Assembly (NCBI RefSeq): GCF_002188635.1
Contig: NZ_NINX01000015.1
Span: 1 to 64,000, forward strand
DNA length: 64,000 nt
Direction: 5' to 3'
Source: Pigmentiphaga sp. NML030171
Lineage (GTDB): Bacteria; Pseudomonadota; Gammaproteobacteria; Burkholderiales; Burkholderiaceae_B
Under the pieces are notes generated by a model. The model made no database searches, was not told the DNA's origin, and saw nothing but the letters and a program-made list of their open reading frames with translations. A program made the translations under genes and the position numbers. This document shows, one piece after another, positions 19,929 to 41,905 of the stretch (positions are counted from its first letter, which is position 1; the number at the start of each line of letters is the position of its first letter).

Positions 19929-21974
19929 CTAGAACGACATGGCCAGGCGCATGCCGGAGCTGATCGCACGCAGCGCGTCGATCTCTGCCGCCGTATGGGC
20001 ACCGCCGATCAGATGTGCCGGAAAACCTCGCGCAATGAGTGCGTGGTAAAGGTCGTTGACCGGCTCCTGTCCCGCGCAGATCACGACGGTATCGACTTCA
20101 AGGCAGCGCAGGTTTCCTTCGACCCGGACATGCAAGCCGGCATCGTCCATGCGCTCGTAGGTACAGCCCGCGACAAACTCGACGCCGGCCCGTTGCAGAT
20201 TTCCTTTCAAGACCCATCCGGTTGTCAGACCCAGCGTCCGGCCCGGTTTTTCGAGACGCCTCTGCAGCATGATGACCTGCCGTGCCGGGGCGGCGGATAG
20301 CGGTGTGGCCAATCCCCCTTTGGCGCGCAAGCTGGGGTCTACGCCCCAGTAGGCTTGAAACTGGCGTATTGCCTGGTCTCCTTCGGCAGGCCACTGCTGA
20401 CCAAGAAGGAACTCCGCTACGTCAAAACCGATGCCGCCCGAGCCTATGACCGCCACACGGCGGCCAGCCTGCGCTTTACCATCGAGCAGGTCGGCATAGG
20501 TGATGACCTTCGGATGCGACACGCCGGGAAAGTCGGGAATACGAGGGCGAACGCCTGTCGCGACAACGATCTGGTCGTAGTCTTGCGCGGCCAGTTCCTC
20601 ATCCGTTGGCGACGCCTGCAATCTCAGGTCGACGCCCAGCACGTCGAACCGCCGGGCGAAGTATCGCAACAGCTCCCTGAACTCCTGCTTTCCAGGCACC
20701 GCCTTCGCGTAATTGAGCTGCCCCCCCAGGCGCTTCGATGCCTCATAAAGCGTGACGTCATGACCCCGCTCCGCCGCCGTGACCGCGCAGGACATCCCAG
20801 CGCCGCCGCCCCCCACAATGGCAATGCGCTGCCGCCGGCGCGAGGCATGCCATTCGGCATAGTCAAGCTCCCTGCCAGCCCGTGGATTGACCAGGCAGGT
20901 CACCGGCTTCCCTTTGAAGATATAGTCGAGGCAGGCCTGGTTGCAGGCAATACAGGTATTGATCTCGTCCGCGCGGCCCGCCGCGGCCTTACTGACGAAA
21001 GCCGGATCCGCCAGAAGAGGACGGGCCATGGAAATCATGTCGGCCACGCCCTCGGCCAGGATCTGCTCCGCGACTTCGGGCGTATTGATGCGGTTCGAGG
21101 CAACGACCGGAATCCCGACGACGCCTTTGATCGCGGCGACGGCGAATCTCCAGGCTCCCCGGGGAACGGCATACATGATGGTCGGAATGAGCGACTCGTG
21201 CCAGCCGATCCCGGTGTTCAGAATGTCGGCACCGACACTTTCCACCGCCTGCGCCAATTGAACGGTTTCCGTCCGGGAAGCGCCGTCTTCAACCAGATCG
21301 ACCGCCGAGATCCGGTACATGACCAGGAAATCCGGCCCCAGCGCCGCGCGGATCCGGCGGACGATCTCGACCGGCAGCCGATGCCTGTTTTCCATGCTGC
21401 CGCCGAATACATCGCTGCGAGGGTTCGTGCGCTCACTCGTAAACTGATTCAGAAGATAGCCTTCCGAACCCATGATTTCGACGCCATCGAAGCCGGCCGC
21501 CCTCGCCAGTTCGGCGCAGCGGACGAAACCCTCGACCGTCCCCCAGACCTCCCGGGTATCGAGTGCGCGCAGGGGACGCCTGTTGATGCGTGACGGACGC
21601 TCCGAGGCTCCCACAGGCCGGGCGATGCGGGCATACCGCCCCGCATGAAGGATTTGCAGGAGTATCTTTCCGCCTTCCCGGTGGACCGCGGCGGTGATGG
21701 GCTTGAGCTTCTCTGCGTCGATCGGACTGGCCAGAACGGGCGCGGACTCGTCCATGCGCCCATCGGGGTGGGGAGCAAAGCCGCCGGTGACCATCAGGGA
21801 CACCCCCTCTCGCGCCCGGGCGGCGTAGAACAACGCCAGACGCTCCGTGTGACGGTCGAGAAGCTCCAGCTGCATATGCATCGCTCCCATCAGGACACGG
21901 TTCCCCAGCAGATGGGTGCCGGCCCGTAGCGGCGACAGCAGTATCGGGTAGCGGGTCGGCGTGCAGAGAGTCAT
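19929..21974 (-). CDS. FadH-like NADH:flavin oxidoreductase / 2,4-dienoyl-CoA reductase
   Basis: 681 aa, the size of FadH (about 672). The N-terminal ~370 residues form an OYE-type FMN barrel (HAGRYARIARPVG, SEGYLLNQFTSERTNPRSDVFGGS). A 4Fe-4S cluster follows in CIACNQACLDYIFKGKPVTC (Cys-x2-Cys-x3-Cys-x11-Cys). A disulfide-reductase-like FAD/NAD(P) domain (VGGGGAGMSCA, VIGSGGIGFDVAEFL) completes it. It would reduce conjugated enoyl-CoA double bonds or related enones. It is the last gene of the ten-gene operon starting at 32592, suggesting an unsaturated intermediate in that pathway. Confidence 0.9.
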   Translation of the reverse strand: MTLCTPTRYPILLSPLRAGTHLLGNRVLMGAMHMQLELLDRHTERLALFYAARAREGVSLMVTGGFAPHPDGRMDESAPVLASPIDAEKLKPITAAVHREGGKILLQILHAGRYARIARPVGASERPSRINRRPLRALDTREVWGTVEGFVRCAELARAAGFDGVEIMGSEGYLLNQFTSERTNPRSDVFGGSMENRHRLPVEIVRRIRAALGPDFLVMYRISAVDLVEDGASRTETVQLAQAVESVGADILNTGIGWHESLIPTIMYAVPRGAWRFAVAAIKGVVGIPVVASNRINTPEVAEQILAEGVADMISMARPLLADPAFVSKAAAGRADEINTCIACNQACLDYIFKGKPVTCLVNPRAGRELDYAEWHASRRRQRIAIVGGGGAGMSCAVTAAERGHDVTLYEASKRLGGQLNYAKAVPGKQEFRELLRYFARRFDVLGVDLRLQASPTDEELAAQDYDQIVVATGVRPRIPDFPGVSHPKVITYADLLDGKAQAGRRVAVIGSGGIGFDVAEFLLGQQWPAEGDQAIRQFQAYWGVDPSLRAKGGLATPLSAAPARQVIMLQRRLEKPGRTLGLTTGWVLKGNLQRAGVEFVAGCTYERMDDAGLHVRVEGNLRCLEVDTVVICAGQEPVNDLYHALIARGFPAHLIGGAHTAAEIDALRAISSGMRLAMSF

Positions 21975-22022
21975 AGCCTTCTCGAAAAACGGGGAATCGA
22001 CGGCGGCTCCGGGCCGAGTTCT

Positions 22023-23678
22023 TCACATTTCGGGGTAGTTCGGACCGCCGCCGCCCTCGGGCGCAACCCACACGATGTTTTGCGTCGGATCCTTGATGTC
22101 GCAGGTTTTGCAATGCACGCAGTTCTGAGCGTTGATCTGCAGGCGTTCGCCATTGCTTCCCGGTTGCGTATCGTTTTTCACGAACTCATAGACCCCTGCC
22201 GGACAATAACGCGATTCCGGGCCGGCATACCTGGCCAGGTTGATGTCGACAGGAACCGACGGGTCCTTGAGCGTCAGGTGCACCGGCTGGTTCTCTTCAT
22301 GAGCCGTGTTCGAGATGAACACCGAAGAAAGGCGATCGAAGCTGATCTTGCCATCCGGCCTGGGATAAGTGATCGGCCTGAAATCCGAGGCGGGCTTCAG
22401 GCACTCGTGGTCGGCGTGCCTGCGGTGCAAGGTCCAGGGCACCTTGCCGCCGAAGAGCTTCTGCTCGATACCCACCATCATGGCCCCCGCGTACAAACCC
22501 TTGCTCATCCACTGCTTGAAGTTTCGCGCGCGATTCAGTTCCGAATAGAGCCAGCTGCGCTTGAACGCTTCCGGATAAGCCAGGAGTTCGTCCCGCGCGC
22601 GGCCGGCGCCGATGGCATCGAAAGCAGCCTGGGCCGCCAGCATGCCGGTCTTGATCGCGGCGTGGCTACCCTTGATGCGCGAAGCGTTCAGGAACCCCGC
22701 ATCGTCGCCCACCAGCACGCCGCCCGGAAAGATCAACCTGGGCAACGAGAGCAGGCCGCCGGCGGTCAATGCGCGCGCGCCATAGGCGAGCCGCTTGCCA
22801 TCCTCGAAGAAGGGCTTGATCATCGGATGCAGCTTGTAGCGCTGGAACTCGTCATACGGACTGAGGTAAGGATTCTGATAGGCCAGGCCGACAACGAAAC
22901 CCGCGGCCACCAGATTGTTTTCCAAATGGTAGAGAAAAGAGCCGCCATAGGTATCGCTTTTCAGAGGCCAGCCGGCGGTATGGATTACCAGGCCCGGCCT
23001 ATGTCTGGCCGGATCGATCTCCCACAATTCCTTCAGGCCTATGCCGTAGGCCTGCGGATCCGCCCCTTTGTTCAGATCGTACTTGGCCATCAGCCTTTTG
23101 CCGAGGTGACCGCGGCACCCTTCGGCGAACACGGTGTACTTGGCAACCAGCTCCATGCCCTCCTGGAAGCCGGCAGTTCGCTCACCATCTCGACCCACGC
23201 CCATATTGCCGGTGGCCACGCCGCGTACGGCGCCTCCCTCGTCATAAAGAATCTCGGTGCCGGCGAAGCCGGCATAGATCTCCACGCCGAGTTCCTCGGC
23301 CTTGGAGGCAAGCCAACGGCACACGTTTCCCAGGGAGACGACGTAGTTGCCATGGTTCTGGAAGTTTCCGGGCAAGGCGAAGCCGGGTACTTTGAAACCG
23401 CCGGACTCGGACAGGAACAGGAACCGATCCTCCGTAACCGGCTGGTTCAGCGGCGCACCGTCTTGCTTCCAGGCCGGCCATAGCTCGTCAATGGCTATCG
23501 GATCCATCACCGCGCCGGAAAGGATATGGGCACCGATCGTCGAACCTTTTTCGATCAGGCAGACGCTGATCTCGCCGCCGCTCTCCAAGGCAAGTTGCTT
23601 GAGCTTGATCGCCGCGGCCAGTCCCGCCGGACCGCCGCCAACGATCAGCACGTCATACTCCATTACTTCCATGGTCAT
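22023..23678 (-). CDS. Electron transfer flavoprotein:ubiquinone oxidoreductase
   Basis: 551 aa. It passes electrons from reduced ETF to ubiquinone in the membrane. The N-terminal FAD motif is VLIVGGGPAGLAAAIKLK. The C-terminal 4Fe-4S domain has CPAGVYEFV and NCVHCKTCDIKDPTQNIVW. Start is uncertain among ATGs at 23678, 23672 and 23663; the last has GGAAG close upstream and starts nearest the FAD fold. A dedicated copy inside a catabolic operon with two acyl-CoA dehydrogenases and a third nearby implies a heavy flux of dehydrogenation electrons. The ETF subunits themselves are not in the window. Confidence 0.95.
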   Translation of the reverse strand: MTMEVMEYDVLIVGGGPAGLAAAIKLKQLALESGGEISVCLIEKGSTIGAHILSGAVMDPIAIDELWPAWKQDGAPLNQPVTEDRFLFLSESGGFKVPGFALPGNFQNHGNYVVSLGNVCRWLASKAEELGVEIYAGFAGTEILYDEGGAVRGVATGNMGVGRDGERTAGFQEGMELVAKYTVFAEGCRGHLGKRLMAKYDLNKGADPQAYGIGLKELWEIDPARHRPGLVIHTAGWPLKSDTYGGSFLYHLENNLVAAGFVVGLAYQNPYLSPYDEFQRYKLHPMIKPFFEDGKRLAYGARALTAGGLLSLPRLIFPGGVLVGDDAGFLNASRIKGSHAAIKTGMLAAQAAFDAIGAGRARDELLAYPEAFKRSWLYSELNRARNFKQWMSKGLYAGAMMVGIEQKLFGGKVPWTLHRRHADHECLKPASDFRPITYPRPDGKISFDRLSSVFISNTAHEENQPVHLTLKDPSVPVDINLARYAGPESRYCPAGVYEFVKNDTQPGSNGERLQINAQNCVHCKTCDIKDPTQNIVWVAPEGGGGPNYPEM

Positions 23679-23697
23679 GCTTTCCAGTCGTTTCCAG

Positions 23698-25104
23698 TCA
23701 ATAGATGGTCGATTCGAGGTGGCGCCACGTTCCCACCGTCTCTCGAAAACTCGGGGCATGTTCCAGGGCGCCGATCGCGCGGCAGAAACCGGCAACCCGG
23801 CTCGCTTCGCAACGCCCTGCGGTCAACTTCCCGAACTTGGTCCGCAGATCGCCGAAATCCATCGGATTGTCCGCATGGCCCTTGGCCGAATCGATCCGGA
23901 CATCGAAACGGTCACCGCTGGCAAGACGCACCGATAGTCTGCAAGGCGCGGATTGCGGATACCCGTCGGATAGTGCCGGGTCGACGGTAACCCGGGTTTT
24001 TCTCATCAAGCCCGCCAGTACCGCATCGTCGAGGCGCGCATCATTGAATGAATCCCTATCCACGTCGCCGTAGACGAGCATGGTCGCGACGACAAAGGGC
24101 AGGCTGTGATCGGCGGTTTCCGCGGTTCTCGGCGCCCACTTCAATGATTCACTCGCCATTTCATTGAACGATTGCTGATACGTCGCCACGTCGATACTTT
24201 CGATCTGATCCGGCCGGACCACACCGAACAGCCGTTGCGCCGCCCAGGCGGCAGCTTGTCCGTGGTAGCACAATGGGAAACTCTTGAAGTTGACCCGCGC
24301 GATGCGGTTCGACTCGCTGGCGATCGACGGCAAGTCCCAATCGAAGGCTCCGGTTATTTCGAACAAACCATGCGGTCCCTCAAACACCTCTTCGGGACCG
24401 GTATACCCCTCCCTTGCCAACAGGACGGCGAACACACCATTGCGGGCGGCGTTCGCTCCCGCACAGTTCTTCCAGCTCGAAAGACTCCCACGCCGGGTTT
24501 GCAGCAATGCAAGATTGGGGGCCAAGGCAAGGGACAGCGCCTGCCCCATTTGTTCCCTGTCCAGACCGAACAACATGCCCGCCCCCATCGCCGATGCGAC
24601 CACGCCGTAGACGGGCTGGTCCCATCCAAGGGCGTTCAAATCGACGGCATCGCAGCAGGCGCAGTAGATCTCGTACGCCGCAATAGTCGCCGCGATGACT
24701 TCCGCGCCGCTCGAGTTACAGGCATCCGCCGCGGCGGCGATGGCGGCAACGACGTCGCTGGGATGTCCGCCGCATTTTTTCCTGTAGGCGTCGCTCAGAT
24801 CGAGCAGGCGTAGCATCACGCCGTTGGCATAAGCCGCCATCTCCACGCTGGCGGTCCAGTCGCAGCCCCAGACCTGGGCGGCCGGCTGCCCCCCCTTGTA
24901 GCGGCCGGCGGTATGGCGGGCTTTGTGCGCCAGGGGCGTATCAAAAGCCCCCAGCGCGCATGCGAAGGTATCCACCAGACTGCGTTTGCACGCATCCACC
25001 GCGGAGGCGGAAAATGAAGCGTCTCTGGCGGAGATCGCGAAATCGACGATTCTGGACGAGGTCTTATCCATTCCCTGCCCGGCCGCTTGCGCGGATCGGG
25101 TCAT
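23698..25104 (-). CDS. MmgE/PrpD-family protein
   Basis: 468 aa. The family includes 2-methylcitrate dehydratase, cis-aconitate decarboxylase and related enzymes acting on branched tricarboxylates. Conserved features seen are SLVDTFACALGAFDTP near the start, KKCGGHPSDVVAAIAAAADA, and NFKSFPLCYHGQAA with a central His. Its role among CoA-ester enzymes is unclear; it could hydrate or dehydrate an acid intermediate. Start ATG at 25104; an in-frame ATG at 25071 is an alternative. It is 19 bp upstream of the ETF-QO gene. Confidence 0.88.
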   Translation of the reverse strand: MTRSAQAAGQGMDKTSSRIVDFAISARDASFSASAVDACKRSLVDTFACALGAFDTPLAHKARHTAGRYKGGQPAAQVWGCDWTASVEMAAYANGVMLRLLDLSDAYRKKCGGHPSDVVAAIAAAADACNSSGAEVIAATIAAYEIYCACCDAVDLNALGWDQPVYGVVASAMGAGMLFGLDREQMGQALSLALAPNLALLQTRRGSLSSWKNCAGANAARNGVFAVLLAREGYTGPEEVFEGPHGLFEITGAFDWDLPSIASESNRIARVNFKSFPLCYHGQAAAWAAQRLFGVVRPDQIESIDVATYQQSFNEMASESLKWAPRTAETADHSLPFVVATMLVYGDVDRDSFNDARLDDAVLAGLMRKTRVTVDPALSDGYPQSAPCRLSVRLASGDRFDVRIDSAKGHADNPMDFGDLRTKFGKLTAGRCEASRVAGFCRAIGALEHAPSFRETVGTWRHLESTIY

Positions 25105-25119
25105 CGATGATTGCAGGCC

Positions 25120-26106
25120 CTAGACCTGGATGCCGCTCGCCTTGATGATGGGAACGAATCGGGCGACCTGCTCTCGAACGAACCTGGCAGTGGACTCCGG
25201 CGTCGAATCCGTGACCGGGTCGATCGCAAGGCCTTGCAGGTCCTTCTGGAACGCCACGTCGCTCATGATCTTGTGAGACTGATCGCCAAGATAGCCCACG
25301 ATGGCCGCCGGCATGGCGGGAGGCCCGAAAAGCGCGTTGAACGTGTAGGACAGCAGGTCGGGCATCCCGCTCTCGACCGCCGTCGGCACTTCGGGGGCAA
25401 TCGGCGAACGCTTGTCCATCGTTATGGCCAGAATGCGGACTCGCCCCATGCGCTGCGCGGCCTCGACCGACGAGAAGGTCGCCATCAGGACCGGAATCTG
25501 TCCGCCGATCAGGTCTTGCACGCTGGTCCCGCTTCCCTTGTAGGGAACATGGGGGAGTTCCAGCCCCCCGGCCTGGGTCTTGAACATTTCGCCGGTCAAG
25601 TGGTTGATGCTGCCGACACCTGCGGAACCATAGGCATACTTGCTCGGATTGGCCTTGATCAACGCGATCAACTCTTGAAGATTCCTGGCTGGAACACTCG
25701 GGTGCACCGCGATCACCATGGGAATGATGCCGAGCAGGGCAATGGGCGTGAAATCCTTCACCGGATCATACGGCGGCTTGCTCATGATGAACGGACTGAT
25801 CGCGTGGGTCGACGACGTCCCGATTTCCAGCGTATATCCGTCCGGCGCCGCGCGAACGACCTCCAGGCTGCCGATCGTGCCCCCTGCCCCGCCTTTGTTT
25901 TCCGGCACGATCGACTGGCCTGCGGCGGACTCCAGTTTCTGTGCAAAACGGCGGCCCAGGATGTCGGTCTGGCCTCCCGGCGCAAAGGGGATGATCAAGC
26001 GTACGGGACGATTCGGATAGGTGCCTTGTGCCAGCGCAAGCCTTGGTGCGACAAGAGATTGCCCGGCAGCCATACCTGCCGTGGCGAGAAAGACGCGGCG
26101 ATCCAT
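25120..26106 (-). CDS. Bug-family periplasmic substrate-binding protein
   Basis: 328 aa. N-terminus MDRRVFLATAGMAAGQSLVAPRL... shows an Arg-Arg pair before a hydrophobic stretch, so Tat or Sec export is possible. The mature part begins YPNRPVRLIIPFAPGGQTDILGRRFAQ, with ENKGGAGGTIG, APDGYTLEIG and VPYKGSGTSVQDL. It is embedded in the ten-gene operon, between the OYE and MmgE genes, and probably scavenges the acid this operon degrades. Confidence 0.92.
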   Translation of the reverse strand: MDRRVFLATAGMAAGQSLVAPRLALAQGTYPNRPVRLIIPFAPGGQTDILGRRFAQKLESAAGQSIVPENKGGAGGTIGSLEVVRAAPDGYTLEIGTSSTHAISPFIMSKPPYDPVKDFTPIALLGIIPMVIAVHPSVPARNLQELIALIKANPSKYAYGSAGVGSINHLTGEMFKTQAGGLELPHVPYKGSGTSVQDLIGGQIPVLMATFSSVEAAQRMGRVRILAITMDKRSPIAPEVPTAVESGMPDLLSYTFNALFGPPAMPAAIVGYLGDQSHKIMSDVAFQKDLQGLAIDPVTDSTPESTARFVREQVARFVPIIKASGIQV

Positions 26107-26153
26107 GAGTGTCTCCTAGGTTGTATGACGCTTGCTCAGGGCACAGAGATGGC

Positions 26154-27290
26154 TCATTTGGCGTCTTTTGTGAAACCGGATTTGGTTCGGCGATTCAACC
26201 ACCACCCATACTGCTTGGGCATCAACGAAAACTCGGCGTCGTAGCCCAGGGCATGGGCTGCGTGGGCGGCCCAGAACGGGTCATAGAGCATTTCGCGGCC
26301 GATTGCGATCAGATCGGCCTGCTGCCGTCGAAGAATCTCGTCCGCCTGCGGCCCATCGATGATCAGGCCCACCGCGGCAGTAGCGATGCCCGCGTCCCGT
26401 CGTATCGCTTCGGCATACGGCACTTGAAATCCGCGATTGGCGACATTGCGCGAAGCAGTCGGAGAGCGGATCGCAATGCCGCTCGCCGAGCAGTCGACGA
26501 GATCCACGCCGCACTTCTTCAGTTCCCTGGCCAGTACGATGGAGTCCTCGATCGTCCAGCCGCCCTCGTCGACCGAAGAAACACGGAAGAACAGCGGTTT
26601 GCCTTCCGGCCAGGCCTTGCGCACCGCCCGCGAAATTTCCAGGGCGAATCGCATCCGGTTTTCCAGACTGCCGCCGTATTCATCCGTTCGATGGTTGGAG
26701 GCCGGGGACAGGAATTGATGGATCAGGTAGCCATGCGCGCCATGAACCTCGAGAATGTCGAATCCGGCCTTCTCGGCACGCTGCGCCGTGGCGACCCATG
26801 CATCGACCACATCGGCTATGTCGCTCTTGGACATGGGACGGGGGATGGGCCATCCTTCCAGGTAGCTTGTCGCACTGGGGCCGATCACCTCCCAGTGCTC
26901 CTCGCCTTCAACTGGCATCGAACGATCGAGCGGACCGAATCCGTCCCACGGCTTGAGCGTCCCCGCCTTGCGCCCCGCATGATTGACCTGGATCGCGGGA
27001 ACCGACCCCTGCGCACGGATGAACTGCGTGAGGCGCTTGAGCGGCGCTATCTGCTCGTCCTTCCACAAGCCCATGTCACCGACGGTGCCCAGGCCCCGAC
27101 GCTCGACTTTGGTCGCCTCCACGAAGACCAGCCCCGCACCGCCCATGGCGAACTTGGCGAAATGGGCGAAATGCCAGTCCGTGATGAAGCCGTCCACCGC
27201 GCTGTACTGGGCCATGGGGGACACCATCACGCGATTCGGAATCGTGACGTCACGAAGGGTCAACGGGGTAAACAGCAGAGGGATTTTCAT
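26154..27290 (-). CDS. Old Yellow Enzyme-family NADH:flavin oxidoreductase (YqjM-like)
   Basis: 378 aa single-domain FMN barrel. VSPMAQYSAVDGFITDWHFAHFAKFAMGG is the thermophilic-like (YqjM class) start, with HAGRKAG (His/Asn pair replaced by typical HAGRK), and VHGAHGYLIHQFLSPASNHRTDEYGGSLENR is diagnostic. It reduces activated C=C bonds in enones or related acids. Start at 27290 (MKIPLLFTPL) overlaps the upstream quinone oxidoreductase stop by 4 bp (ATGA). A second C=C reductase (FadH-like) lies in the same operon. Confidence 0.92.
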   Translation of the reverse strand: MKIPLLFTPLTLRDVTIPNRVMVSPMAQYSAVDGFITDWHFAHFAKFAMGGAGLVFVEATKVERRGLGTVGDMGLWKDEQIAPLKRLTQFIRAQGSVPAIQVNHAGRKAGTLKPWDGFGPLDRSMPVEGEEHWEVIGPSATSYLEGWPIPRPMSKSDIADVVDAWVATAQRAEKAGFDILEVHGAHGYLIHQFLSPASNHRTDEYGGSLENRMRFALEISRAVRKAWPEGKPLFFRVSSVDEGGWTIEDSIVLARELKKCGVDLVDCSASGIAIRSPTASRNVANRGFQVPYAEAIRRDAGIATAAVGLIIDGPQADEILRRQQADLIAIGREMLYDPFWAAHAAHALGYDAEFSLMPKQYGWWLNRRTKSGFTKDAK

Positions 27291-30317: not shown

Positions 30318-30340
30318 GAGGACTTCGGCTCCGAAAATTC

Positions 30341-32592: not shown

Positions 32593-32677
32593 GTGTTTCG
32601 TACATCGGCGTTGCCGGGGGTACGGCTCCGCCGAAATGTCTCCGAAAAAATTCTTCTGGAAAGCTTGCCAGGCGTTC

Positions 32678-32706: not shown

Positions 32707-32735
32707 ATTATTAAATCTAACGAGCACCCTGTCAA
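32707..32735 (-). promoter_or_regulatory. Sigma-70 promoter of the leftward acyl-CoA dehydrogenase operon
   Basis: On the minus strand, a perfect TTGACA (32735-32730) is followed by a 17-bp spacer and AATAAT (32712-32707). It would start transcription near 32700, within operator copy A and about 108 bases before the GTG start codon. Confidence 0.75.
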
Positions 32736-32811
32736 CAGAAACCAGGCCACCGGCGGAGATTCCTGGATGAGAGGACGGAGGCGACGGCATGCCCGCCCGA
32801 CAAGGCGGAAC

Positions 32812-33606: not shown

Positions 33607-33672
33607 GTCTGCTCCTCGGTTGTCGTGGCAAAAAATATTCAACGAATCATGGCATAGAACCTTTCGTCAGTG

Positions 33673-33678
33673 TATATT
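33673..33678 (+). promoter_or_regulatory. Candidate -10 element of the rightward operon
   Basis: TATATT lies one base before operator copy B, the same arrangement as the -10 element and copy A. The -35 region (around 33650) is poor, which would fit an activated or weak promoter. Confidence 0.45.
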
Positions 33679-33679
33679 T

Positions 33680-33708
33680 ACGAACATCGTTCATATATAA
33701 GAACGAAT
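33680..33708 (+). promoter_or_regulatory. 29-bp operator copy B of the alicyclic-acid module
   Basis: ACGAAC-N3-GTTCAT-N4-AAGAACGAAT, 25/29 identical to copy A and in the same orientation relative to its downstream operon (73 bp before the CoA-transferase ATG at 33781). It lies between divergent badI and the rightward operon, so it can serve both. Confidence 0.75.
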
Positions 33709-33780
33709 CAGGAATAGTCCCCCGCCCCGGACAGTGCGGCCGCCCCTCGGAACAAAGCCCTACTCACATCGCAGATAGAC

Positions 33781-35007: not shown

Positions 35008-35041
35008 AGCGGGGCGCAAAGCGCCCAAGGAACCCGCACAA

Positions 35042-36187
35042 ATGACCTACGAACTTCAAGAGGATCAACGCCAGGTCCAGGATCTCATCCGCCGCGTCGC
35101 CAGGGAGCGCGTCGCTCCACGCGCGCAGGAAATCGACCGGACTGCCGAATACCCTCACGACATGTTTGCCCTGCTCAAGGATCTGGGACTGTTCACCTTG
35201 CCTTTTCCCGAGGTCTATGGCGGCGCCAACAGCATGCTGTCCGCATGCGTTGCCATCGAGGAACTGGGACGTGTCTGCTACAACACCGCCTACCTCCTTC
35301 TCGTCCAGTGGGTGCCTTTTGGAGCAATCCTCGCTGGCGGCACCGAGGCCCAGAAACAGCGCTTGCTGCCCGGCCTGGCTGCCGGAGAGATCCGCGGCGC
35401 GTTTTCCACCACCGAGGCGCAGAGCGGGTCCGATGTCGGCAGCATCCGCTGCCGCGCCGTAAAGGTGGAGGGCGGCTACAGGATCAATGGCGCCAAGATC
35501 TGGTGCACGAACTCCGACATCGCGGATTTCGTCCTGGTGGCGGCCAAGTACAACGATGGCGACAAGGACGGAATCAGCCTGTTCATCATCGAGAAAAACG
35601 CCGAGGGATTCACGGTCGGAAAGAAAGAAGACAAGATCGGCGCACGCGGCGTTCCCTCCTGCCCGCTCTTCCTCGACAACGTATTCGTCCCCGACGAAAA
35701 CCTGCTCGGAGGCGGCTTCCGCGCCGTCATGGAAGCCTTCAATGCCAGCCGTCCGCTGATCGGCGCTCGCGGTGTCGGACTGGCCCAGGGCGCCATCGAC
35801 CACGCCATCGAGTTCATCACCAACCGCAATGCCTTCGGCCAGTCCATTTCGGAATTCCAAGGCATCCGATGGATGCTGGCGGACATGGCGATCCAGACCG
35901 AGGCCGCGCGCAACCTGGTCTACCGCGCCGCATCGATGGTGGATGCCTGCGAACCCGCTGCCGCGCTGGCGCCGGTCGCCGCCATGGCCAAGTGCTTTGC
36001 CACGGACACCGCGATGCGTGTGGCAACCGACGCGGTGCAGATGTTCGGCGCCGCCGGCGTCTCGTCGGAGTACCCGATCAACCGATACTTCCGGGACGCG
36101 AAAGTTCTTCAGATCATCGAAGGCACCAATCAAATCCAACGCAACATCGTCGCCAACGGGTTGCTTGGCCGTCCTTCCCGCCGATAG
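35042..36187 (+). CDS. Acyl-CoA dehydrogenase (candidate cyclohexanecarboxyl-CoA dehydrogenase)
   Basis: 381 aa single-chain ACAD. FSTTEAQSGSDVGSIRCRA is the FAD/substrate block, NRNAFGQSISEFQGIRWMLADM the dimer helix, and IIEGTNQIQRNIV the C-terminal motif with the catalytic-type Glu. Placed before MaoC and badH in one operon, it may perform the ring dehydrogenation done by AliB in cyclohexanecarboxylate degradation; sequence alone cannot separate it from other short-chain ACADs. ATG at 35042 follows AAGGAACCC. Electrons would leave through ETF and the ETF-QO at 22023. Confidence 0.92.
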   Translation: MTYELQEDQRQVQDLIRRVARERVAPRAQEIDRTAEYPHDMFALLKDLGLFTLPFPEVYGGANSMLSACVAIEELGRVCYNTAYLLLVQWVPFGAILAGGTEAQKQRLLPGLAAGEIRGAFSTTEAQSGSDVGSIRCRAVKVEGGYRINGAKIWCTNSDIADFVLVAAKYNDGDKDGISLFIIEKNAEGFTVGKKEDKIGARGVPSCPLFLDNVFVPDENLLGGGFRAVMEAFNASRPLIGARGVGLAQGAIDHAIEFITNRNAFGQSISEFQGIRWMLADMAIQTEAARNLVYRAASMVDACEPAAALAPVAAMAKCFATDTAMRVATDAVQMFGAAGVSSEYPINRYFRDAKVLQIIEGTNQIQRNIVANGLLGRPSRR

Positions 36188-36224
36188 ACGGACGCCAGGC
36201 ACCGCCAACAGTAAAGGTAAAACC

Positions 36225-36707
36225 ATGAGTGAAGAAGACATCCCCACCGTCGGTCTTGGCCTGTACTTCGAGGATCTACCGCTCGGGAGGAAATTCAAGA
36301 CGCTCGGCCGCACCGTCCAGGACGCCGATATCTGCGCATTCATCAACGTCATTCACATGACGGAGGTGCTGTTCACCGATATGGAGTTCGTCAGGAACGA
36401 GTCGGACATCAAGGGCCGTATTGCCCCGGGGGCGTTCATCTACGGCATGGCCGAAGGCCTGCTCGCCCAATCGACGATGCAGAAGACGGGCTACGCGTTC
36501 ATCAACATGGAGCTTACCGTCCATTCGCCAGTGTTTGCCGGCGACACCTTGCATGTGGAGTGCGAGGTCATCGAATCCCGCCGTTCGAATAGCCGGCCGG
36601 GCCGTGCACTGGTCCGTACCCGCAACAAGGTCGTCAAGCAGGACGGCACGGTCGCCTTGACCTACACCCCGCTGCGGATGCTGAAGTGCCGAGACGCAGC
36701 GAGATAG
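36225..36707 (+). CDS. MaoC-like hot-dog-fold dehydratase
   Basis: 160 aa. GLYFEDLPLGRKFKTLGRTVQDADICAFINVIHMTEVLF is the start typical of MaoC-like acyl dehydratases, with Asp and His in place near residues 33-43, followed by IKGRIAPGAFIYGMAEGL. It would hydrate an enoyl-CoA or dehydrate a hydroxyacyl-CoA. It offers an alternative to the crotonase at 41135 for the ring-hydration step. ATG follows AAAGGTAAAACC. Confidence 0.85.
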   Translation: MSEEDIPTVGLGLYFEDLPLGRKFKTLGRTVQDADICAFINVIHMTEVLFTDMEFVRNESDIKGRIAPGAFIYGMAEGLLAQSTMQKTGYAFINMELTVHSPVFAGDTLHVECEVIESRRSNSRPGRALVRTRNKVVKQDGTVALTYTPLRMLKCRDAAR

Positions 36708-36732
36708 CAACTTTTTTGCAATGGAGAAAGCC

Positions 36733-37500
36733 ATGCGAGGACTCAAGGACAAAGTCGTCATCATTACCGGCGGAGCCGGCGGCATCGGCGCGGCGCTTTC
36801 TGCAAGATTCGCCGCCGAAGGCAGCAAAGTCGCCATCTTCGATCTCAACGCGGCCAGTGCCGACGAAGTCGTGGAAGGGATCAAGACGAACGGAGGAACA
36901 GCCATCGGCTGCGCGGTCGATATCACCGATCACGATGCCGTCAATGAAGCGGTCGCCAGGATCGAGGCCACGCTCGGCCCCGTCGACGTGCTCGTGAACA
37001 ACGCCGGCTGGGATCACGCGGACCGCTTCGTCAACACCACGCCGGCCCTTTGGCAGAAGCTGATCTCCATCAATCTCGTCGGCCCGCTGAATCTCCATCA
37101 TGCGGTGCTCAAAGGTATGCTCGAACGCGGTCATGGACGCATCGTGAACATTGCCTCCGATGCCGGCCGGGTCGGCTCCTCGGGAGAATCCGTCTACTCG
37201 GCATGCAAGGGCGGCATCATCGCCTTCACCAAGACCATCGCCCGCGAGACCGCGCGCAAGAAGATCAACGTCAACGTTGTCTGCCCGGGGCCGACCGACA
37301 CCGCACTGTTCAAGGATTTTGCCGGGGAAGGCGAAAGCGGAGACAAGCTGCGCGGTGCGCTGGAAAAAGCGATTCCGTTTGGCCGCCTGGGCCAGCCGGA
37401 AGATGTAGTCGGTGCCGTCTGCTTCCTGGCCTCGGACGATGCGTCCTTCATTACGGGTCAGGTGATTTCGGTCTCGGGTGGGCTGACGATGGCGGGCTAG
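36733..37500 (+). CDS. badH: BadH-like 2-hydroxycyclohexanecarboxyl-CoA dehydrogenase
   Basis: 255 aa SDR. It has the NAD motif GGAGGIG (13-19), NNAGW (89-93), and the catalytic Ser142, Tyr155 and Lys159 (SVYSACKGG). It closely resembles R. palustris BadH as I remember it, sharing NNAGWD, HHAVLKGMxERxHGRIVNIASDAxRVGSSGE, VVCPGPTDTAL and the ending ITGQVxSVSGGLTM. BadH makes 2-ketocyclohexanecarboxyl-CoA, the substrate of BadI. ATG 36733 is chosen because GGAG lies just upstream and it aligns with the BadH start; ATG 36721 lacks a ribosome site. Confidence 0.87.
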   Translation: MRGLKDKVVIITGGAGGIGAALSARFAAEGSKVAIFDLNAASADEVVEGIKTNGGTAIGCAVDITDHDAVNEAVARIEATLGPVDVLVNNAGWDHADRFVNTTPALWQKLISINLVGPLNLHHAVLKGMLERGHGRIVNIASDAGRVGSSGESVYSACKGGIIAFTKTIARETARKKINVNVVCPGPTDTALFKDFAGEGESGDKLRGALEKAIPFGRLGQPEDVVGAVCFLASDDASFITGQVISVSGGLTMAG

Positions 37501-37559
37501 CGCCGTCCGCCCCCTTTCACCTGGCAGCACCGGTTCCCAATGAATGCGAGACAAACGGC

Positions 37560-38522
37560 ATGAAGACGATTCTCAAGACGGTTCCCCTTCTCCTCCTCAT
37601 GGCGTCCAACGCCGCCCACGCCGAAGAAACCTATCCGTCGCGCCCGATCCGCCTGGTCCTTGGATTTGCCGCCGGCGGAGGGACCGATGTCATTGCCCGC
37701 GGCATTGCCCAGAAAATGGGCGATGCCATGGGAGGACAGGTCTTCGTCGACAACGTGACCGGCGCCAACGGCAATATCGGCAGCGACCAGGTCGCGAAAT
37801 CCAGGGCTGACGGCTACACGCTCCTCTACAACACGTCCGCCCTGATCCTGAGTCCTTCGCTGTACACGAAGCTTCCGTACAGCTACAAGGATTTTCAGCC
37901 CGTTGCTCTCACGGCCAGCCTCCCGATCATCCTGGTGGCATCACCGAAGAGCCCGTACAAAAGCGCGTCGGACCTCATCGCCGCCATCAAGGCGAATCCG
38001 GGAAGGTTGAACTACGCGTCCGCCGGGAACGGCAACATCACCCACCTCTCCGCACTGCTCCTGCTACAAGCGATCGGGGGGTCCGCAACTCACGTTCCCT
38101 ACAAGGGCGAAGCCCCCGCCGTCACCGACGTCGCAAGCGGACAGGTGGATTTCTATGCGGGCACCTCCGCGGGAGTGATCCCATTCATCAAAGACAAGCG
38201 CCTGATCGCCCTGGCAGTGGGCACGGAAAAGCGCATGAGCGGGCTGCCGGATGTCCCCACCCTCTCCGAGGTTGTCGGCAAGCCGTTGGAACTTGGCGCC
38301 TGGTCAGGCATCGTGGCCCCGGCGGGCACCAAACCCGAAATCGTCGCCAAGCTCAACGCGGCCATTCAAACGGCCCTGAACGACAAGGATCTACTGGTTC
38401 GCCTTGCAGAACAGGGAGCCGAACCGAAGCACGGCACGCCAGTCCAATATGGCAGGTTCATCGCTGACGAACATGAGCGATGGGACAGGATCATCAAATC
38501 CAACAACGCACGCATCGACTAG
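37560..38522 (+). CDS. Bug-family periplasmic substrate-binding protein
   Basis: 320 aa with a Sec signal peptide MKTILKTVPLLLLMASNAAHA and mature start YPSRPIRLVLGFAAGGGTDVIARGIA. DNVTGANGNIGSDQVAKSRADGYTLLYN and VPYKGEAPAVTDV are standard Bug blocks. It lies in the rightward operon 59 bp after badH, so both operons of the module carry their own receptor. Confidence 0.93.
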   Translation: MKTILKTVPLLLLMASNAAHAEETYPSRPIRLVLGFAAGGGTDVIARGIAQKMGDAMGGQVFVDNVTGANGNIGSDQVAKSRADGYTLLYNTSALILSPSLYTKLPYSYKDFQPVALTASLPIILVASPKSPYKSASDLIAAIKANPGRLNYASAGNGNITHLSALLLLQAIGGSATHVPYKGEAPAVTDVASGQVDFYAGTSAGVIPFIKDKRLIALAVGTEKRMSGLPDVPTLSEVVGKPLELGAWSGIVAPAGTKPEIVAKLNAAIQTALNDKDLLVRLAEQGAEPKHGTPVQYGRFIADEHERWDRIIKSNNARID

Positions 38523-38550
38523 CCCTGCAAGATCGAAGAGGAAGCATGCA

Positions 38551-39000
38551 ATGGCTATCGACACCCTGGAACAAATGCAGGCGATCGTGGACCGGTCACC
38601 CTTCAATCGATGGATCGGCGTCAAAGTTGCCCATCTGGGCCCCGATGGGCTCATGCTGGAGGTTCCCTGGCGTCTCGACCTCGTATCCAGTCCGGAACGC
38701 AACTCGATACACGGCGGTGTCCTGGCATCGCTCATCGATACGGCCGGCGACTACGCCATTGCAGCACGCCTTGGCTATCCGGTCCCGACCATCGACCTTA
38801 GCGTGGACTATCACCGGGCCGCCAGCTCCGGGGTCTTGCGCGCCAGTGCGCAGGTCGTTCACATGGGGAAGCAATTGATCACTGCGGAAACGCGCATTGC
38901 CGATGACCAAGGCCGCCCGATCGCCAGCGGTCGAGGACTCTATTTCGACAGCGGCCCCCCTCGGGCGGTAGCCAAGACGACCGGCGCCGGACAGCAATGA
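38551..39000 (+). CDS. PaaI-family acyl-CoA thioesterase
   Basis: 149 aa hot-dog thioesterase. NSIHGGVLASLIDTAGDYAIA is the HGG-type motif with the Asp, and PTIDLSVDYHRAA follows. It could release CoA from dead-end esters. ATG 38551 has GAAGAGGAAG upstream. Its stop overlaps the racemase start (ATGA). Confidence 0.9.
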   Translation: MAIDTLEQMQAIVDRSPFNRWIGVKVAHLGPDGLMLEVPWRLDLVSSPERNSIHGGVLASLIDTAGDYAIAARLGYPVPTIDLSVDYHRAASSGVLRASAQVVHMGKQLITAETRIADDQGRPIASGRGLYFDSGPPRAVAKTTGAGQQ

Positions 39001-40157
39001 CAACGACGACCGGTATTGCCAGCGGCCCCTTGAAGGGAATCAGGATTGTCGAATTTGCGGGCATAGGCCCGTCGCCGATGGCAGCCATGACCCTCGCCGA
39101 CATGGGCTCGACGGTACTGAGGATAGATCGGCCGGTCCCGCCTGGCCTGGGCATCGAGCGACCGCTCGAATACAACCTGCTCTTGCGCAATCGCCAAAGC
39201 ATCGCACTCGACTTGAAGGATCCGGCGAGCAAGGAGCTGGTGCTGGAACTGCTTGAAACAGCGGATGCCCTGATCGAAGGCTTTCGTCCCGGCACGATGG
39301 AGCGGCTGGGATTGGGGCCGGAGATCTGTCTTGCCCGCAATCCACGCCTCGTATACGGCCGGATGACGGGCTGGGGGCAAGACGGTCCCCTGGCTCGAGC
39401 AGCCGGACATGATCTGAACTACATCGCTCTGACCGGCGTATTGAGCTGGATCGGGCGCGAAAAGCAACCGCCCACGCCGCCGCTCAATCTGGTGGGAGAC
39501 TATGCGGGCGGCGGACTCTATCTGGCGTTGGGAATTCTTGCTGCCATCCTCGAGGCACGCAATTCCGGACAAGGACAAATCGTCGATGCCGCGATTGTCG
39601 ATGGCACGGCCGCCCTGGCAACCTCCGTTTTCGGCATGCATGAAGCGGGCATGCTCGGTCCCCGGGGAGAGAACATCCTCGATTCCGGCGCCCCCTACTA
39701 CGACGTGTATGAATGTGCCGACGGATGCTGGGTGTCGGTCGCGCCGATCGAAGACAAGTTCTATCAAGATCTTCTCGAGCGTCTGGAGATCGATGCAACG
39801 ACGCTCGGCCGCCGGGAGGCTCCCGATTATCGTCGACGGGCGGCGGCCGCCTTGAAGGCCAGATTCAAAAGCCAGGATCGCGACTATTGGTGCAGGCTGC
39901 TGGAAGGTACGGACGCTTGCTTCGCGCCGGTCCTGAGCGCCAGCGAGGCGCCGGAGCACCCCCACCTCAAGGCTCGCCGGACCTTCGTGACGGTGGACGG
40001 AATCACCCAGCCGGCGGCGGCGCCGCGATTCTCTCGTACCGGCAACGGGCTTCCCGTTCCGCCGGCGAAACCGACCAAAGAGACAGGCAGGGCAGTTCTT
40101 GCAGAGTGGCTGGGCGCCGAAAAGGCGCGATCAAGAGAGGAATTGCTGAAAGGATGA
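38997..40157 (+). CDS. Alpha-methylacyl-CoA racemase-like protein
   Basis: 386 aa CaiB/BaiF fold, but of the AMACR branch: GPLKGIRIVEFAGIGPSPMAAMTLADMG is the racemase start, and the catalytic set seen in mycobacterial MCR is conserved as His138 (AGHDLNY), Asp168 (NLVGDYAGGG) and Glu239 (YYDVYEC). It would invert an alpha-branched acyl-CoA centre so that a stereospecific dehydrogenase can act. That suggests the module's substrates are chiral alpha-substituted acids. Last gene of the rightward operon. Confidence 0.85.
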   Translation: MTTTTGIASGPLKGIRIVEFAGIGPSPMAAMTLADMGSTVLRIDRPVPPGLGIERPLEYNLLLRNRQSIALDLKDPASKELVLELLETADALIEGFRPGTMERLGLGPEICLARNPRLVYGRMTGWGQDGPLARAAGHDLNYIALTGVLSWIGREKQPPTPPLNLVGDYAGGGLYLALGILAAILEARNSGQGQIVDAAIVDGTAALATSVFGMHEAGMLGPRGENILDSGAPYYDVYECADGCWVSVAPIEDKFYQDLLERLEIDATTLGRREAPDYRRRAAAALKARFKSQDRDYWCRLLEGTDACFAPVLSASEAPEHPHLKARRTFVTVDGITQPAAAPRFSRTGNGLPVPPAKPTKETGRAVLAEWLGAEKARSREELLKG

Positions 40158-40177
40158 TCGACGCCGGGCCTGCTGCC

Positions 40178-41002
40178 TCAATTGCGAACGTCGCGCAGTA
40201 CGTCGGAGGCTCGCGGTGCGACCTCCAGCATCAGCCTCTTCAAATCAGGAAGAGCCTTCTGGAAACGCTCGGTAGGGCCGGCAATCATCAACGCATGCGT
40301 CGCCGTGCCATCGTTGGAAACAATGGGCGCGGCAATACCGGAAGCGCCAGAAACCGCTTCCCCGAGACTGATGGCGATACCTGTGCTTTGGATCCGCTCG
40401 AGCTCGTCCCTGAGCCAGGCCTTGTCGATAGCGGCCTTGGTCACCGGACCGACCATCTTGGTCGACTTGATGTACCGGTCACGCCATTCCGGCGGCTGGA
40501 AAGCCAGCAGGGCGCGGCCGGCGGCAGACACGAACAGGGGCCGGGAGGTACCCGCGGGGACGGCATAGCGAACGGCTTCCTGGCTCTCGATCATTTCCAC
40601 GTAGTTGCACAGACCGACCGTGCGGTCGATGGTGGCGAGGTAGACACTTTCGCCGCTCCTCTCGGCAAGCTCCAGCAGAAACGTGCGTATCAGTTTGGAG
40701 AAGGTACGGACAGAAAGTATGTCGAGCGAAAGCTGGAACGCCTTCGGCCCCAGGCTGTAACGGCCCGTGGCTTGCGTCAAGAAGCCACTTTGCACCAATG
40801 GCCTCAGGAGAGAAAGCAGGCTGCTCTTGGGAGAGACCAACGCGGCGCTCAACTCGGCAAGCGACATGCTATCGCCGGATTTGGCCAGGGAGTGGAATAT
40901 GTTCAACAGACGCATCAGGGACCGGGGCCCCGACGATCCTGCCTCGCCAGGCATCACATCTTCACGCTTTGGATTTTTTCCAGTATTCGTCAACTGCGTC
41001 AT
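40178..41002 (-). CDS. IclR-family transcriptional regulator
   Basis: 274 aa. The N-terminal winged HTH is SGPRSLMRLLNIFHSLAKSGDSMSLAELSAALVSPKSSLLSLLRPLVQSGFL, and the C-terminal IclR effector domain ends with GIAAPIVSNDGTATHALMIAGPTERF. ATG 41002 is chosen; a longer frame to 41134 overlaps the divergent crotonase start. It is a natural candidate regulator for the module, but its own promoter region shows no copy of the 29-bp operator. Confidence 0.9.
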   Translation of the reverse strand: MTQLTNTGKNPKREDVMPGEAGSSGPRSLMRLLNIFHSLAKSGDSMSLAELSAALVSPKSSLLSLLRPLVQSGFLTQATGRYSLGPKAFQLSLDILSVRTFSKLIRTFLLELAERSGESVYLATIDRTVGLCNYVEMIESQEAVRYAVPAGTSRPLFVSAAGRALLAFQPPEWRDRYIKSTKMVGPVTKAAIDKAWLRDELERIQSTGIAISLGEAVSGASGIAAPIVSNDGTATHALMIAGPTERFQKALPDLKRLMLEVAPRASDVLRDVRN

Positions 41003-41134
41003 GTCCCGTGTCGAATCCAGAGAAGATGCGGATATGCAGAGCGATCTCAGTTTAACGCGTTTAAGTCGCCCACACCCCCTTCTTCCGCCTTGCCGTGAAC
41101 ATTGAAAGTCCCTTTTTTCGCTTTGGAGACGCAC

Positions 41135-41905
41135 ATGCTGGTTACCCTTGAGTATCGTGGAGCGATTGCGATCGCAACGTTGAACCGCCCGGAGGCCCTC
41201 AACGCGTTAAGCCTTGAACTGCTGTCCGATTTGAGGGATGTCATCGGGCAGATCCGGCAATCCGCGGCGCGCGGATTGCTCATCACCGGCTCCGGCGGCA
41301 AGGCTTTCTGCGCTGGCGCCGACATCAAGGAAATGATGGAACGCTCTGCTTCTGCAAGCAGGAAGGCCATTGCGGAAGCGCAAGCCATCATCAGCAGCGT
41401 CGGCACGCTCCCCATCCCCTCTGTCGCCGTGATCAACGGCTTTGCCTTCGGGGGCGGACTCGAGATCGCCCTGGCGTGCACGTTCCGGGTCGCGATGAAG
41501 CAAGCACGGATGGGCTTGCCGGAGATCAAACTCGGCCTCATACCCGGATACGGCGGCACGCAGCGACTCCCGCGCCTCGTCGGCGAATCGCGCGCGCTCG
41601 ATCTGATTCTTTCCGGACGGACGGTCGATGCCGACGAAGCCTATCGCATGGGGTTGGTTGACCGGCTGTCGGAAGGCAGCGACCCGATCGAAGCGGGCGT
41701 GGATTTCCTGGCTTCGTTCACGGGCTTCAGCCTTGCCGCCTCCGCCCTCGCCCGGGAAGCGGTCGCGAGAGGGGCGGAGCGCGGCCTGGACGATGCGCTC
41801 AGGATCGAAGGCGATTTGCTGACGCTCGCGCTTCAAACCGGCGATGCCAAGGAAGGCATGCTGGCGTTCATCGAAAAGCGCAAGGCTTGCTTCAAGGATG
41901 AATGA
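41135..41905 (+). CDS. Enoyl-CoA hydratase with canonical catalytic glutamates (BadK candidate)
   Basis: 256 aa. Both catalytic Glu residues are present: Glu110 in FGGGLEIAL and Glu130 in LPEIKLGLIPGYGGTQRL; KAFCAGADIKEM forms the oxyanion loop. It could hydrate cyclohex-1-enecarboxyl-CoA, the step done by BadK. ATG 41135 has TTTGGAGAC upstream. Divergent from the IclR gene and probably a separate transcription unit. Confidence 0.9.
   Translation: MLVTLEYRGAIAIATLNRPEALNALSLELLSDLRDVIGQIRQSAARGLLITGSGGKAFCAGADIKEMMERSASASRKAIAEAQAIISSVGTLPIPSVAVINGFAFGGGLEIALACTFRVAMKQARMGLPEIKLGLIPGYGGTQRLPRLVGESRALDLILSGRTVDADEAYRMGLVDRLSEGSDPIEAGVDFLASFTGFSLAASALAREAVARGAERGLDDALRIEGDLLTLALQTGDAKEGMLAFIEKRKACFKDE

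What the first reader, a model, noticed from the sequence alone, without database searches (positions are those of the whole stretch)
19929..41905. A 22-kb CoA-dependent alicyclic-acid ring-opening module
BadH and BadI homologues carry out the last two steps of cyclohexanecarboxyl-type ring cleavage (2-hydroxy to 2-keto to pimeloyl-CoA). Here they sit with three acyl-CoA dehydrogenases, MaoC, a canonical hydratase, two Bug receptors, ETF-QO, two C=C reductases (OYE and FadH types), a racemase and a thioesterase. This is richer than the ali/bad genes I know. It suggests a substituted, partly unsaturated or chiral ring acid, for example a naphthenic acid or monoterpene-derived acid. The substrate is my inference; the badH/badI assignment rests on remembered sequences.
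Basis: partly seen in the sequence, partly recalled or inferred. Interest (0 to 1): 0.75.

Follow-up and report, generated by a model that had tools for sequence, protein, structure and literature searches.

The report
Mobile ring-acid degradation gene island
A 22-kb block of genes inserted into a bacterial genome looks able to activate a saturated ring-shaped acid, adjust its handedness, and cut the ring open, using mostly different enzymes from the textbook pathway although the last two steps are the same.

Summary
BadI (467.1 bits, cut-off 467.6) and BadH (397.7, cut-off 431.2) miss the curated cut-offs but are best hits by a wide margin and score like enzymes of AliA/AliB clusters. The rest is not bad-ali: no CoA ligase found, an ACAD scoring 181 bits on the AliB model (control 612), IclR instead of MarR. 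Instead there are class III CoA-transferases, an alpha-methylacyl-CoA racemase with intact active-site residues, FadH/OYE reductases and an ACAD pair. Eleven of the 21 genes recur, reshuffled, in each of two genomes of another family. A 24-bp IclR-type operator occurs exactly twice in 5.86 Mb, before both main operons, suggesting one regulon; some relatives lack it. The racemase suggests a C1-stereogenic, substituted or unsaturated ring acid; the substrate is unproven and perillate not favoured. The MaoC protein lacks the canonical dyad. Verdict: new variant of a known kind.

The parts
19907..41962 (.). whole inserted island, about 22.06 kb, GC 0.619 against 0.675 (left) and 0.684 (right)
   Evidence: empty LysR-queA site in G002, G005, G007; present in G003; GC
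19929..21974 (-). FadH-type 2,4-dienoyl-CoA reductase (OYE + pyridine nucleotide domain, motif CIACNQACL..C)
22023..23672 (-). ETF:quinone oxidoreductase
   Evidence: Fer4_ETF_QO 170 bits
23698..25104 (-). MmgE/PrpD family protein
25120..26106 (-). TctC/Bug periplasmic receptor 1
26154..27290 (-). OYE, NamA-like
27287..28318 (-). zinc-type (MDR) quinone/enoyl reductase
28321..29106 (-). crotonase ECH2 (atypical: GAGMD)
29103..30317 (-). class III CoA-transferase CoAT1 (Asp178 kept)
30341..31417 (-). acyl-CoA dehydrogenase ACD2 (weakly IpdE2/PimD-like)
   Evidence: 84 bits at best
31429..32592 (-). acyl-CoA dehydrogenase ACD1 (weakly PimC-like)
   Evidence: 147 bits at best
32681..32704 (-). 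operator 2, GAACANCGTTC-N8-GAACG exact, upstream of ACD1
32707..32735 (-). promoter-like TTGACA-17-AATAAT before ACD1 (consensus match only)
   Evidence: 11 of 12
32812..33606 (-). BadI, 2-ketocyclohexanecarboxyl-CoA hydrolase
33649..33678 (+). promoter-like ATGGCA-18-TATATT before CoAT2 (consensus match only)
   Evidence: 9 of 12
33682..33705 (+). operator 1, exact, midway between BadI and CoAT2
33781..35007 (+). class III CoA-transferase CoAT2 (SUGCT-like, Asp180 kept)
35042..36187 (+). acyl-CoA dehydrogenase ACD3 (Glu360 kept)
36225..36707 (+). MaoC-like hotdog-family protein without the canonical Asp/His
36733..37500 (+). BadH, 2-hydroxycyclohexanecarboxyl-CoA dehydrogenase (Tyr155, Lys159)
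37560..38522 (+). TctC/Bug periplasmic receptor 2
38551..39000 (+). hotdog-fold thioesterase
38997..40157 (+). alpha-methylacyl-CoA racemase (His138, Asp168, Glu239)
40178..41002 (-). IclR-family regulator, proposed to bind both operators
   Evidence: relatives at 44-55%
41135..41905 (+). enoyl-CoA hydratase ECH3 with both catalytic Glu (110, 130); BadK candidate; no operator found before it

Best explanation
The island is a horizontally acquired catabolic regulon for a C1-stereogenic (ring-substituted or ring-unsaturated) alicyclic carboxylic acid. Proposed order: Bug receptors capture the acid; CoA-transferase CoAT2 makes the CoA thioester; the racemase epimerises C1 so that both stereoisomers fit ACD3; ACD3 forms the 1-ene-carboxyl-CoA and passes electrons to ETF and the island's ETF-QO; FadH and perhaps OYE/MDR remove an existing ring double bond (a 3-ene acid would become a 2,4-dienoyl-CoA after ACD3, the FadH substrate type); ECH3 and/or the MaoC protein add water; BadH oxidises to the 2-keto compound; BadI hydrolyses the ring to a substituted pimelyl-CoA. 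The ACD1/ACD2 pair, ECH2, CoAT1 and the thioesterase then start to shorten the branched dicarboxyl-CoA; no thiolase or 3HCDH-type dehydrogenase was found among the island ORFs scanned, so host enzymes must finish. The IclR protein probably represses both main operons from two three-box operators just downstream of -10-like boxes. Shown: gene families, insertion, recurrence of the gene set, operator sequences. Inferred: reaction order, racemase role, repression, substrate class.
For: BadI 467.1 and BadH 397.7 bits, next families 353 and 230; AliA/AliB-linked enzymes score 470.6 and 462.0 (BadI) and 361.4 (BadH). BadI keeps the MenB-type Asp and Tyr. Racemase about 365 bits to solved AMACRs with residues kept; at 45% identity or more in 3 of 80 BadI loci, all among the 4 ACD3-type loci (one of them, L008, a near-copy of the window), 0 of the other 76; in 7 of 16 ACD3 stretches examined. 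ACD3 at E<=1e-100 in 7 of 399 order genomes, all 7 with BadI at E<=1e-105 (19 of 399). ACD1 at 60% or more in 4 of 399, all among those 7. Rearranged sets in L148 and L157. Operator exactly twice in the genome, 0 in the reversed-pattern control; it also lies upstream of ACD1 in L148 with 1 mismatch and beside ACD3, CoAT2 or IclR in L010, L011, L012, L152. Clean insertion.
Against: No experiment. BadH and BadI fall below NCBIfam's curated cut-offs (by 33.5 and 0.5 bits). Of 16 ACD3 stretches, nine have no BadI in what is held (L091, L092, L094, L149, L152-L156) and nine no racemase (L011, L094, L148, L149, L152-L156). No operator with up to 2 mismatches in L150 and L151, which do have ACD3, BadI and racemase, nor in L092, L094, L149, L154-L156. 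No operator before ECH3. The CoA-transferase in L148/L157 is only 31% like CoAT2. MaoC lacks the canonical dyad. OYE, PrpD and ETF-QO were not found in L148 or L157.
Confidence: 0.68

Rival explanations
1. An ordinary cyclohexanecarboxylate pathway with swapped enzymes; the racemase and reductases serve only later branched-chain or unsaturated steps, or are passengers.
For: BadI of different cluster types is intermixed in the tree, so BadI does not tell substrates apart. L011 has CoAT2-ACD3-MaoC-BadH and BadI with no racemase in the 20.8 kb held; nine of 16 ACD3 stretches show no racemase.
Against: Cyclohexanecarboxyl-CoA has no C1 stereocentre, so it needs no racemase; racemase in 3 of 4 ACD3-type loci and 0 of 76 other BadI loci, many of them short; racemase divergent from ACD3 in L150 and L151.
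Confidence: 0.17
2. A monoterpene-acid (perillate, mrc-like) ring-cleavage island as in Castellaniella defragrans.
For: mrc also combines BadH/BadI homologues, a 2,4-dienoyl reductase, MaoC proteins and ACAD on a genomic island (PMC4109377 passages).
Against: BadI 64.6% to the pAZKH enzyme that by gene order is mrc-type, against up to 86% to others; no CoA ligase among the ORFs scanned; perillate is already a 1-ene acid, so it needs neither ACD3 nor a C1 racemase.
Confidence: 0.08
3. Two unrelated catabolic operons joined by chance: a ring module (+ strand and badI) and a separate branched-acid module (ACD1 to FadH).
For: L010, L011, L012 and L091 carry the + strand core without ACD1/ACD2 in the stretch held.
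Against: Same operator before both operons, found exactly nowhere else in the genome; both modules together in L148, and largely in L157, with the operator before ACD1 in L148.
Confidence: 0.07

Closest known systems
bad-ali cyclohexanecarboxylate pathway (Rhodopseudomonas palustris, Aromatoleum sp. CIB; PMC9795900, abstract and sections 17 and 21 read)
   Same: BadH and BadI; beta-oxidation-like ring opening of CoA thioesters; two divergent operons as in strain CIB
   Different: No AliA ligase found, no AliB orthologue, IclR instead of MarR BadR, no CAAN4TTG in the two spacers checked, plus racemase, CoA-transferases, FadH/OYE and ACD1/ACD2
mrc monoterpene ring cleavage of Castellaniella defragrans 65Phen (PMC4109377, passages read)
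   Same: BadH/BadI homologues with dienoyl reductase, MaoC proteins and ACAD on an island in an Alcaligenaceae
   Different: perillate activated by a ligase; BadI type about 65% identical to this one (via pAZKH); no racemase or CoA-transferase among the mrcA-H genes in the table passages seen
FadH-BadH-BadI-ECH clusters of Cupriavidus, Paraburkholderia, Caballeronia, Acinetobacter (L009, L013, L014, L025, L088-L090)
   Same: FadH (51-55% in the four measured), BadH (58-66%), BadI (78-86%), ECH3-like hydratase behind badI (54% in L009, 51% in L088)
   Different: AMP-binding ligase annotated beside them in L088 and L089 (at a distance in L090), MarR in L089 and L090; no ACD3, MaoC, racemase or ACD1/ACD2 at 45% or more in L009, L013, L014, L025

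Membership tests
bad-ali pathway | BadI: nearest family, placed among AliA/AliB-linked BadI | tested here: met
   TIGR03210 467.1 bits against 353 for the next model; AliB-linked rows lie on both sides of its group in the tree (one MenB row as outgroup)
bad-ali pathway | BadI over the curated cut-off | tested here: not met
   467.1 against 467.6; AliA/AliB-linked controls 470.6 and 462.0
bad-ali pathway | BadH over the curated cut-off | tested here: not met
   397.7 against 431.2; an AliA/AliB-linked BadH scores 361.4, so the cut-off also excludes it
bad-ali pathway | AliB cyclohexanecarboxyl-CoA dehydrogenase | tested here: not met
   ACD3 180.8 bits on TIGR03207, cut-off 575.4; control 612.4
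bad-ali pathway | AliA AMP-forming ligase | tested here: not met
   no AMP-binding hit among the island ORFs scanned
bad-ali pathway | BadK hydratase | tested here: inconclusive
   ECH3 keeps both Glu and resembles the hydratase behind badI in L009/L088; no BadK model or sequence compared
bad-ali pathway | MarR-type BadR and CAAN4TTG operator | tested here: not met
   regulator is IclR; no CAAN4TTG in the BadI-CoAT2 or IclR-ECH3 spacer
bad-ali pathway | growth on cyclohexanecarboxylate | not testable with these tools
   -
mrc monoterpene ring cleavage | mrc-type BadI (MrcE) | tested here: inconclusive
   64.6% to a pAZKH protein that stands for it by gene order; the record has 2 such places, and C. 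defragrans itself was not compared
alpha-methylacyl-CoA racemase | family match and active-site His, Asp, Glu | tested here: met
   366 bits to 8rmw; AGHD, LVGDY, YYDVYEC kept; residue roles recalled
MaoC (R)-specific hydratase | GDxNPxH-type Asp and His | tested here: not met
   Met and Phe at these columns in a weak (42-bit) alignment; Met/Leu/Ile and Phe in the 28 rows aligned; motif recalled
IclR three-box operator | boxes of alternating direction in the target promoters | tested here: met
   GAAC/GTTC/GAAC at two spacers; description in PMC8222616 passages; binding not testable

The most novel reading that the evidence does not exclude
A distinct, mobile ring-opening pathway in which CoA-transferase activation and a dedicated C1 racemase let one stereospecific dehydrogenase process both cis/trans or R/S isomers of substituted (naphthenic-type) or 3-unsaturated cyclohexanecarboxylates before BadH/BadI cleavage, with one IclR regulator controlling both ring opening and the first branched-chain steps.
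Probability: 0.38. Interest if true: 0.62.

Novelty: new variant of a known kind. Interest (0 to 1): 0.52.

Why it matters
Naphthenic acids are largely substituted rings present as stereoisomer mixtures, and why some isomers persist is an open practical question (general knowledge). A compact mobile regulon with a racemase ahead of the ring dehydrogenase would make that question genetically testable and would give a marker set (ACD3, racemase, operator) for finding such degraders.

Tried and rejected
Simple bad-ali membership was rejected on AliA, AliB and the regulator. An mrc/perillate assignment was disfavoured. A MaoC hydratase as the sole ring hydratase was set aside after the dyad check. 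BadI phylogeny was tried as a predictor of substrate and failed: cluster types intermix. No shared repeat of 9 bases or more was found at the two ends and no integrase among the ORFs scanned, so the mode of insertion is unknown. Literature searches for a published cluster of this make-up gave nothing in the listings and passages seen: (open-licence papers only). The naphthalene thn route was considered from passages of a review and not pursued. A structure prediction of the MaoC protein was not finished, so no fold search was made.
Full report
OBSERVATION. The window is G000:C54:1-64000 of a 5.86-Mb, 57-contig genome. I called ORFs by length and codon-position GC and scanned 40 ORFs of 12.4-46.7 kb, some of them opposite-strand rivals, against Pfam and 20 against NCBIfam. 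Start sites were trimmed by hand to family boundaries, so starts are approximate.

AN INSERTION WITH DEFINED ENDS. In the genus (11 genomes), queA is found in 10 and a close LysR orthologue (87% identity or more) in 6. In G002, G005 and G007 the two matches are neighbours, 48-72 bases apart. In the window and in G003 they are separated by 22 kb. Alignment with the empty sites puts the left end of homology at about 19906 and its return at about 41963, an insertion of about 22,056 bases. G003 carries the island at about 96% DNA identity, and its contig length equals that of MKUP01000025.1, 'Burkholderiales bacterium 67-32'. In G008 the LysR lies on another contig than queA; the other five congeners have no close LysR, so they say nothing. 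The island's MaoC protein at 100% identity was found in 2 of the 11. Island GC is 0.619 against 0.675 and 0.684 in the flanks; no repeat of 9 bases or more joins the ends.

BADI AND BADH. BadI scores 467.1 bits on TIGR03210 (cut-off 467.6), with a MenB model next at 353. BadH scores 397.7 on TIGR03206 (cut-off 431.2), next family 230. Both miss the curated cut-offs. So the cut-offs also exclude enzymes of complete ali clusters. BadI aligns with solved MenB over its length (321 bits) and keeps VGSVD and LYYGTEE; the role of these residues is recalled. In the BadI tree (53 rows, one MenB row as outgroup) AliB-linked rows lie on both sides of the window's group, which is mostly Burkholderiales; cluster types are intermixed. 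In the BadH tree (36 rows, unrooted) the AliA/AliB-linked rows form one side of a branch (SH-aLRT 98) and the window lies on the other side with ACD3-type and FadH-type rows; long branches make details unsure.

WHAT IS NOT BAD-ALI. ACD3 scores 180.8 bits on the AliB model against 612.4 for the control. No AMP-forming ligase was found among the ORFs scanned. Class III CoA-transferase CoAT2 is nearest to the succinate-glutarate/HMG group (476 bits, cut-off 750; 333 bits to 9br6) and keeps the aspartate. The regulator is IclR, and the two spacers checked hold no CAAN4TTG, the BadR site described in PMC9795900 (abstract and sections 17 and 21 read).

THE RACEMASE. The third CoA-transferase-family protein matches solved alpha-methylacyl-CoA racemases at 321-366 bits, against about 129 or less for transferases, and keeps AGHD, LVGDY and YYDVYEC. 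Among 80 BadI loci of the genome collection, a racemase of at least 45% identity was seen in 3 (L008, L010, L012), all among the 4 loci that carry ACD3, and in 0 of the other 76. L008 is a near-copy of the window, and loci are at most about 20 kb and often shorter, so absence is a lower bound. In 16 ACD3 stretches, 7 show it (L010, L012, L091-L093, L150, L151) and 9 do not. Cyclohexanecarboxyl-CoA has no stereocentre at C1; a 3- or 4-substituted or 3-unsaturated ring acid has one (or cis/trans forms). This is the main argument for a substituted or unsaturated substrate. It is an inference: the racemase could also act after ring opening.

FADH AND THE REDUCTASES. FadH keeps CIACNQACL..C. A ring with a C3-C4 double bond would, after ACD3, be a 2,4-dienoyl-CoA, which is the chemistry of FadH (recalled). 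FadH also occurs beside BadH/BadI in a second kind of cluster (7 of 94 loci classed; annotated examples).

THE HYDRATASE. The MaoC protein matches solved MaoC proteins weakly (42 bits); in that alignment the Asp and His of the canonical motif (recalled) are Met and Phe, and the 28 rows aligned have Met/Leu/Ile and Phe there. ECH3 keeps both catalytic glutamates (GGGLE, PEI) and is 54% and 51% identical to the hydratase behind badI in L009 and L088. I prefer ECH3 as the BadK substitute, although no operator was found before it. The function of the MaoC protein is open; a structure job did not finish.

RECURRENCE. CoAT2-ACD3-MaoC-BadH beside BadI recurs in L011 and L012 and, with genes in pieces, L010; ACD3-MaoC-other CoAT-BadH-BadI in L093; without BadI nearby in L091, plasmid pA82. 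L148 (G173) holds BadI, BadH, FadH, MDR, MaoC, ACD3, IclR, ACD1, ACD2, CoAT1 and ECH2 (11); L157 (G040, same genus) holds the same except BadH and ACD3, plus the racemase and a Bug receptor (11). Against a strict link: L091, L092, L094, L149 and L152-L156 have ACD3 without BadI in the stretch held. In 399 order genomes ACD3 passes E<=1e-100 in 7, BadI passes 1e-105 in 19, and all 7 are among the 19. By genus it is 4 within 13 of 159; four of the 7 genomes are one genus. The chance figures, 1.7e-10 and 2.8e-5, ignore relatedness. ACD1 passes 1e-90 in 50 of 399 but reaches 60% identity in 4, all among the 7.

THE OPERATOR. The BadI-CoAT2 spacers share GAACANCGTTC-N8-GAAC. In the own genome it occurs exactly twice and the reversed control 0 times (about 0.04 expected at even base composition): at 33682-33705, 75 bases from each start codon, and at 32681-32704, 88 bases before ACD1. 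With three mismatches allowed the window shows no excess (2 found, 1.70 expected), but both hits are exact. Two or three bases separate each site from a -10-like box; the scan found 3 promoter-like sites against 0.5 expected in shuffles, one of them overlapping operator 2 on the other strand, and operator 2 itself scores as terminator-like. Of 33 other loci scanned, 9 have a hit with up to two mismatches: exact in L010, L012 and L152; one mismatch in L011 and, just before ACD1, L148; two in L091, L093, L153 and L157. About 0.13 two-mismatch hits are expected per 20 kb, so these last are weak alone. None in L009, L088-L090, L199, L200, L046, L018, L005-L007 and L158; but also none in L150 and L151, which hold ACD3, BadI and the racemase, nor in L092, L094, L149 and L154-L156. 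[quoted passage not shown] The link to this IclR protein is inference.

KNOWN SYSTEMS. PMC4109377 (passages) describes mrcA-H; PMC4547698 (passages) proposes AliA/AliB/BadH/BadI steps for 4-methylcyclohexanecarboxylate in C. gilardii CR3; PMC2842291 (passages) states that JMP134 degrades cyclohexanecarboxylate; PMC12507874 (passages) and PMC12016498 (passages) were looked at for other uses of BadI-like chemistry. None of the passages seen describes this gene set; my searches cover open-licence papers only. The mrc comparison rests on pAZKH, taken as mrc-type because its gene order and the paper's table agree; accessions were not matched.

VERDICT. It works like the bad-ali ring opening and is not a member of it. 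It is a real, mobile, probably single-regulon variant whose substrate is not known.

Noticed in passing
G000:C16:16399-17187 (L005): A second BadI homologue (443 bits, 66.5% to the window's), with a CoA-transferase III, Bug receptors, crotonases, a reductase and an IclR-like ORF within about 20 kb: possibly a second ring-cleavage cluster in the same genome.
   Followed up: partly
window 12-11902: Lower-GC stretch (0.606) next to tRNA-Leu with an FMO-like (possibly Baeyer-Villiger) monooxygenase, PntAB-like genes, Bug, CoA-transferase III, MFS, SDR and an AraC regulator: perhaps another catabolic island.
   Followed up: no
L009, L013, L014, L025, L088, L089, L090: Another BadI cluster type, FadH-BadH-BadI with an ECH behind badI where looked at, in Cupriavidus, Paraburkholderia, Caballeronia and Acinetobacter; may serve dienoyl ring acids.
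   Followed up: partly
L098-L114 and G000:C45:51366-51815: A wide MaoC-like clade without the canonical hydratase Asp/His; beside a class III CoA-transferase in G000:C45 and in several ACD3-type clusters; function unknown.
   Followed up: partly
L091 1-8000; L010 16591-20322; L011 15394-19136: Carboxyltransferase and ATP-grasp CoA-ligase-type genes near the ring core in three relatives, with an AtuA protein on pA82: a possible beta-methyl removal module.
   Followed up: no
L202 9986-10798: A BadI homologue (71%) on a Variovorax plasmid between a class III aminotransferase and an AMP-binding gene: possibly for an amino-substituted ring acid.
   Followed up: no
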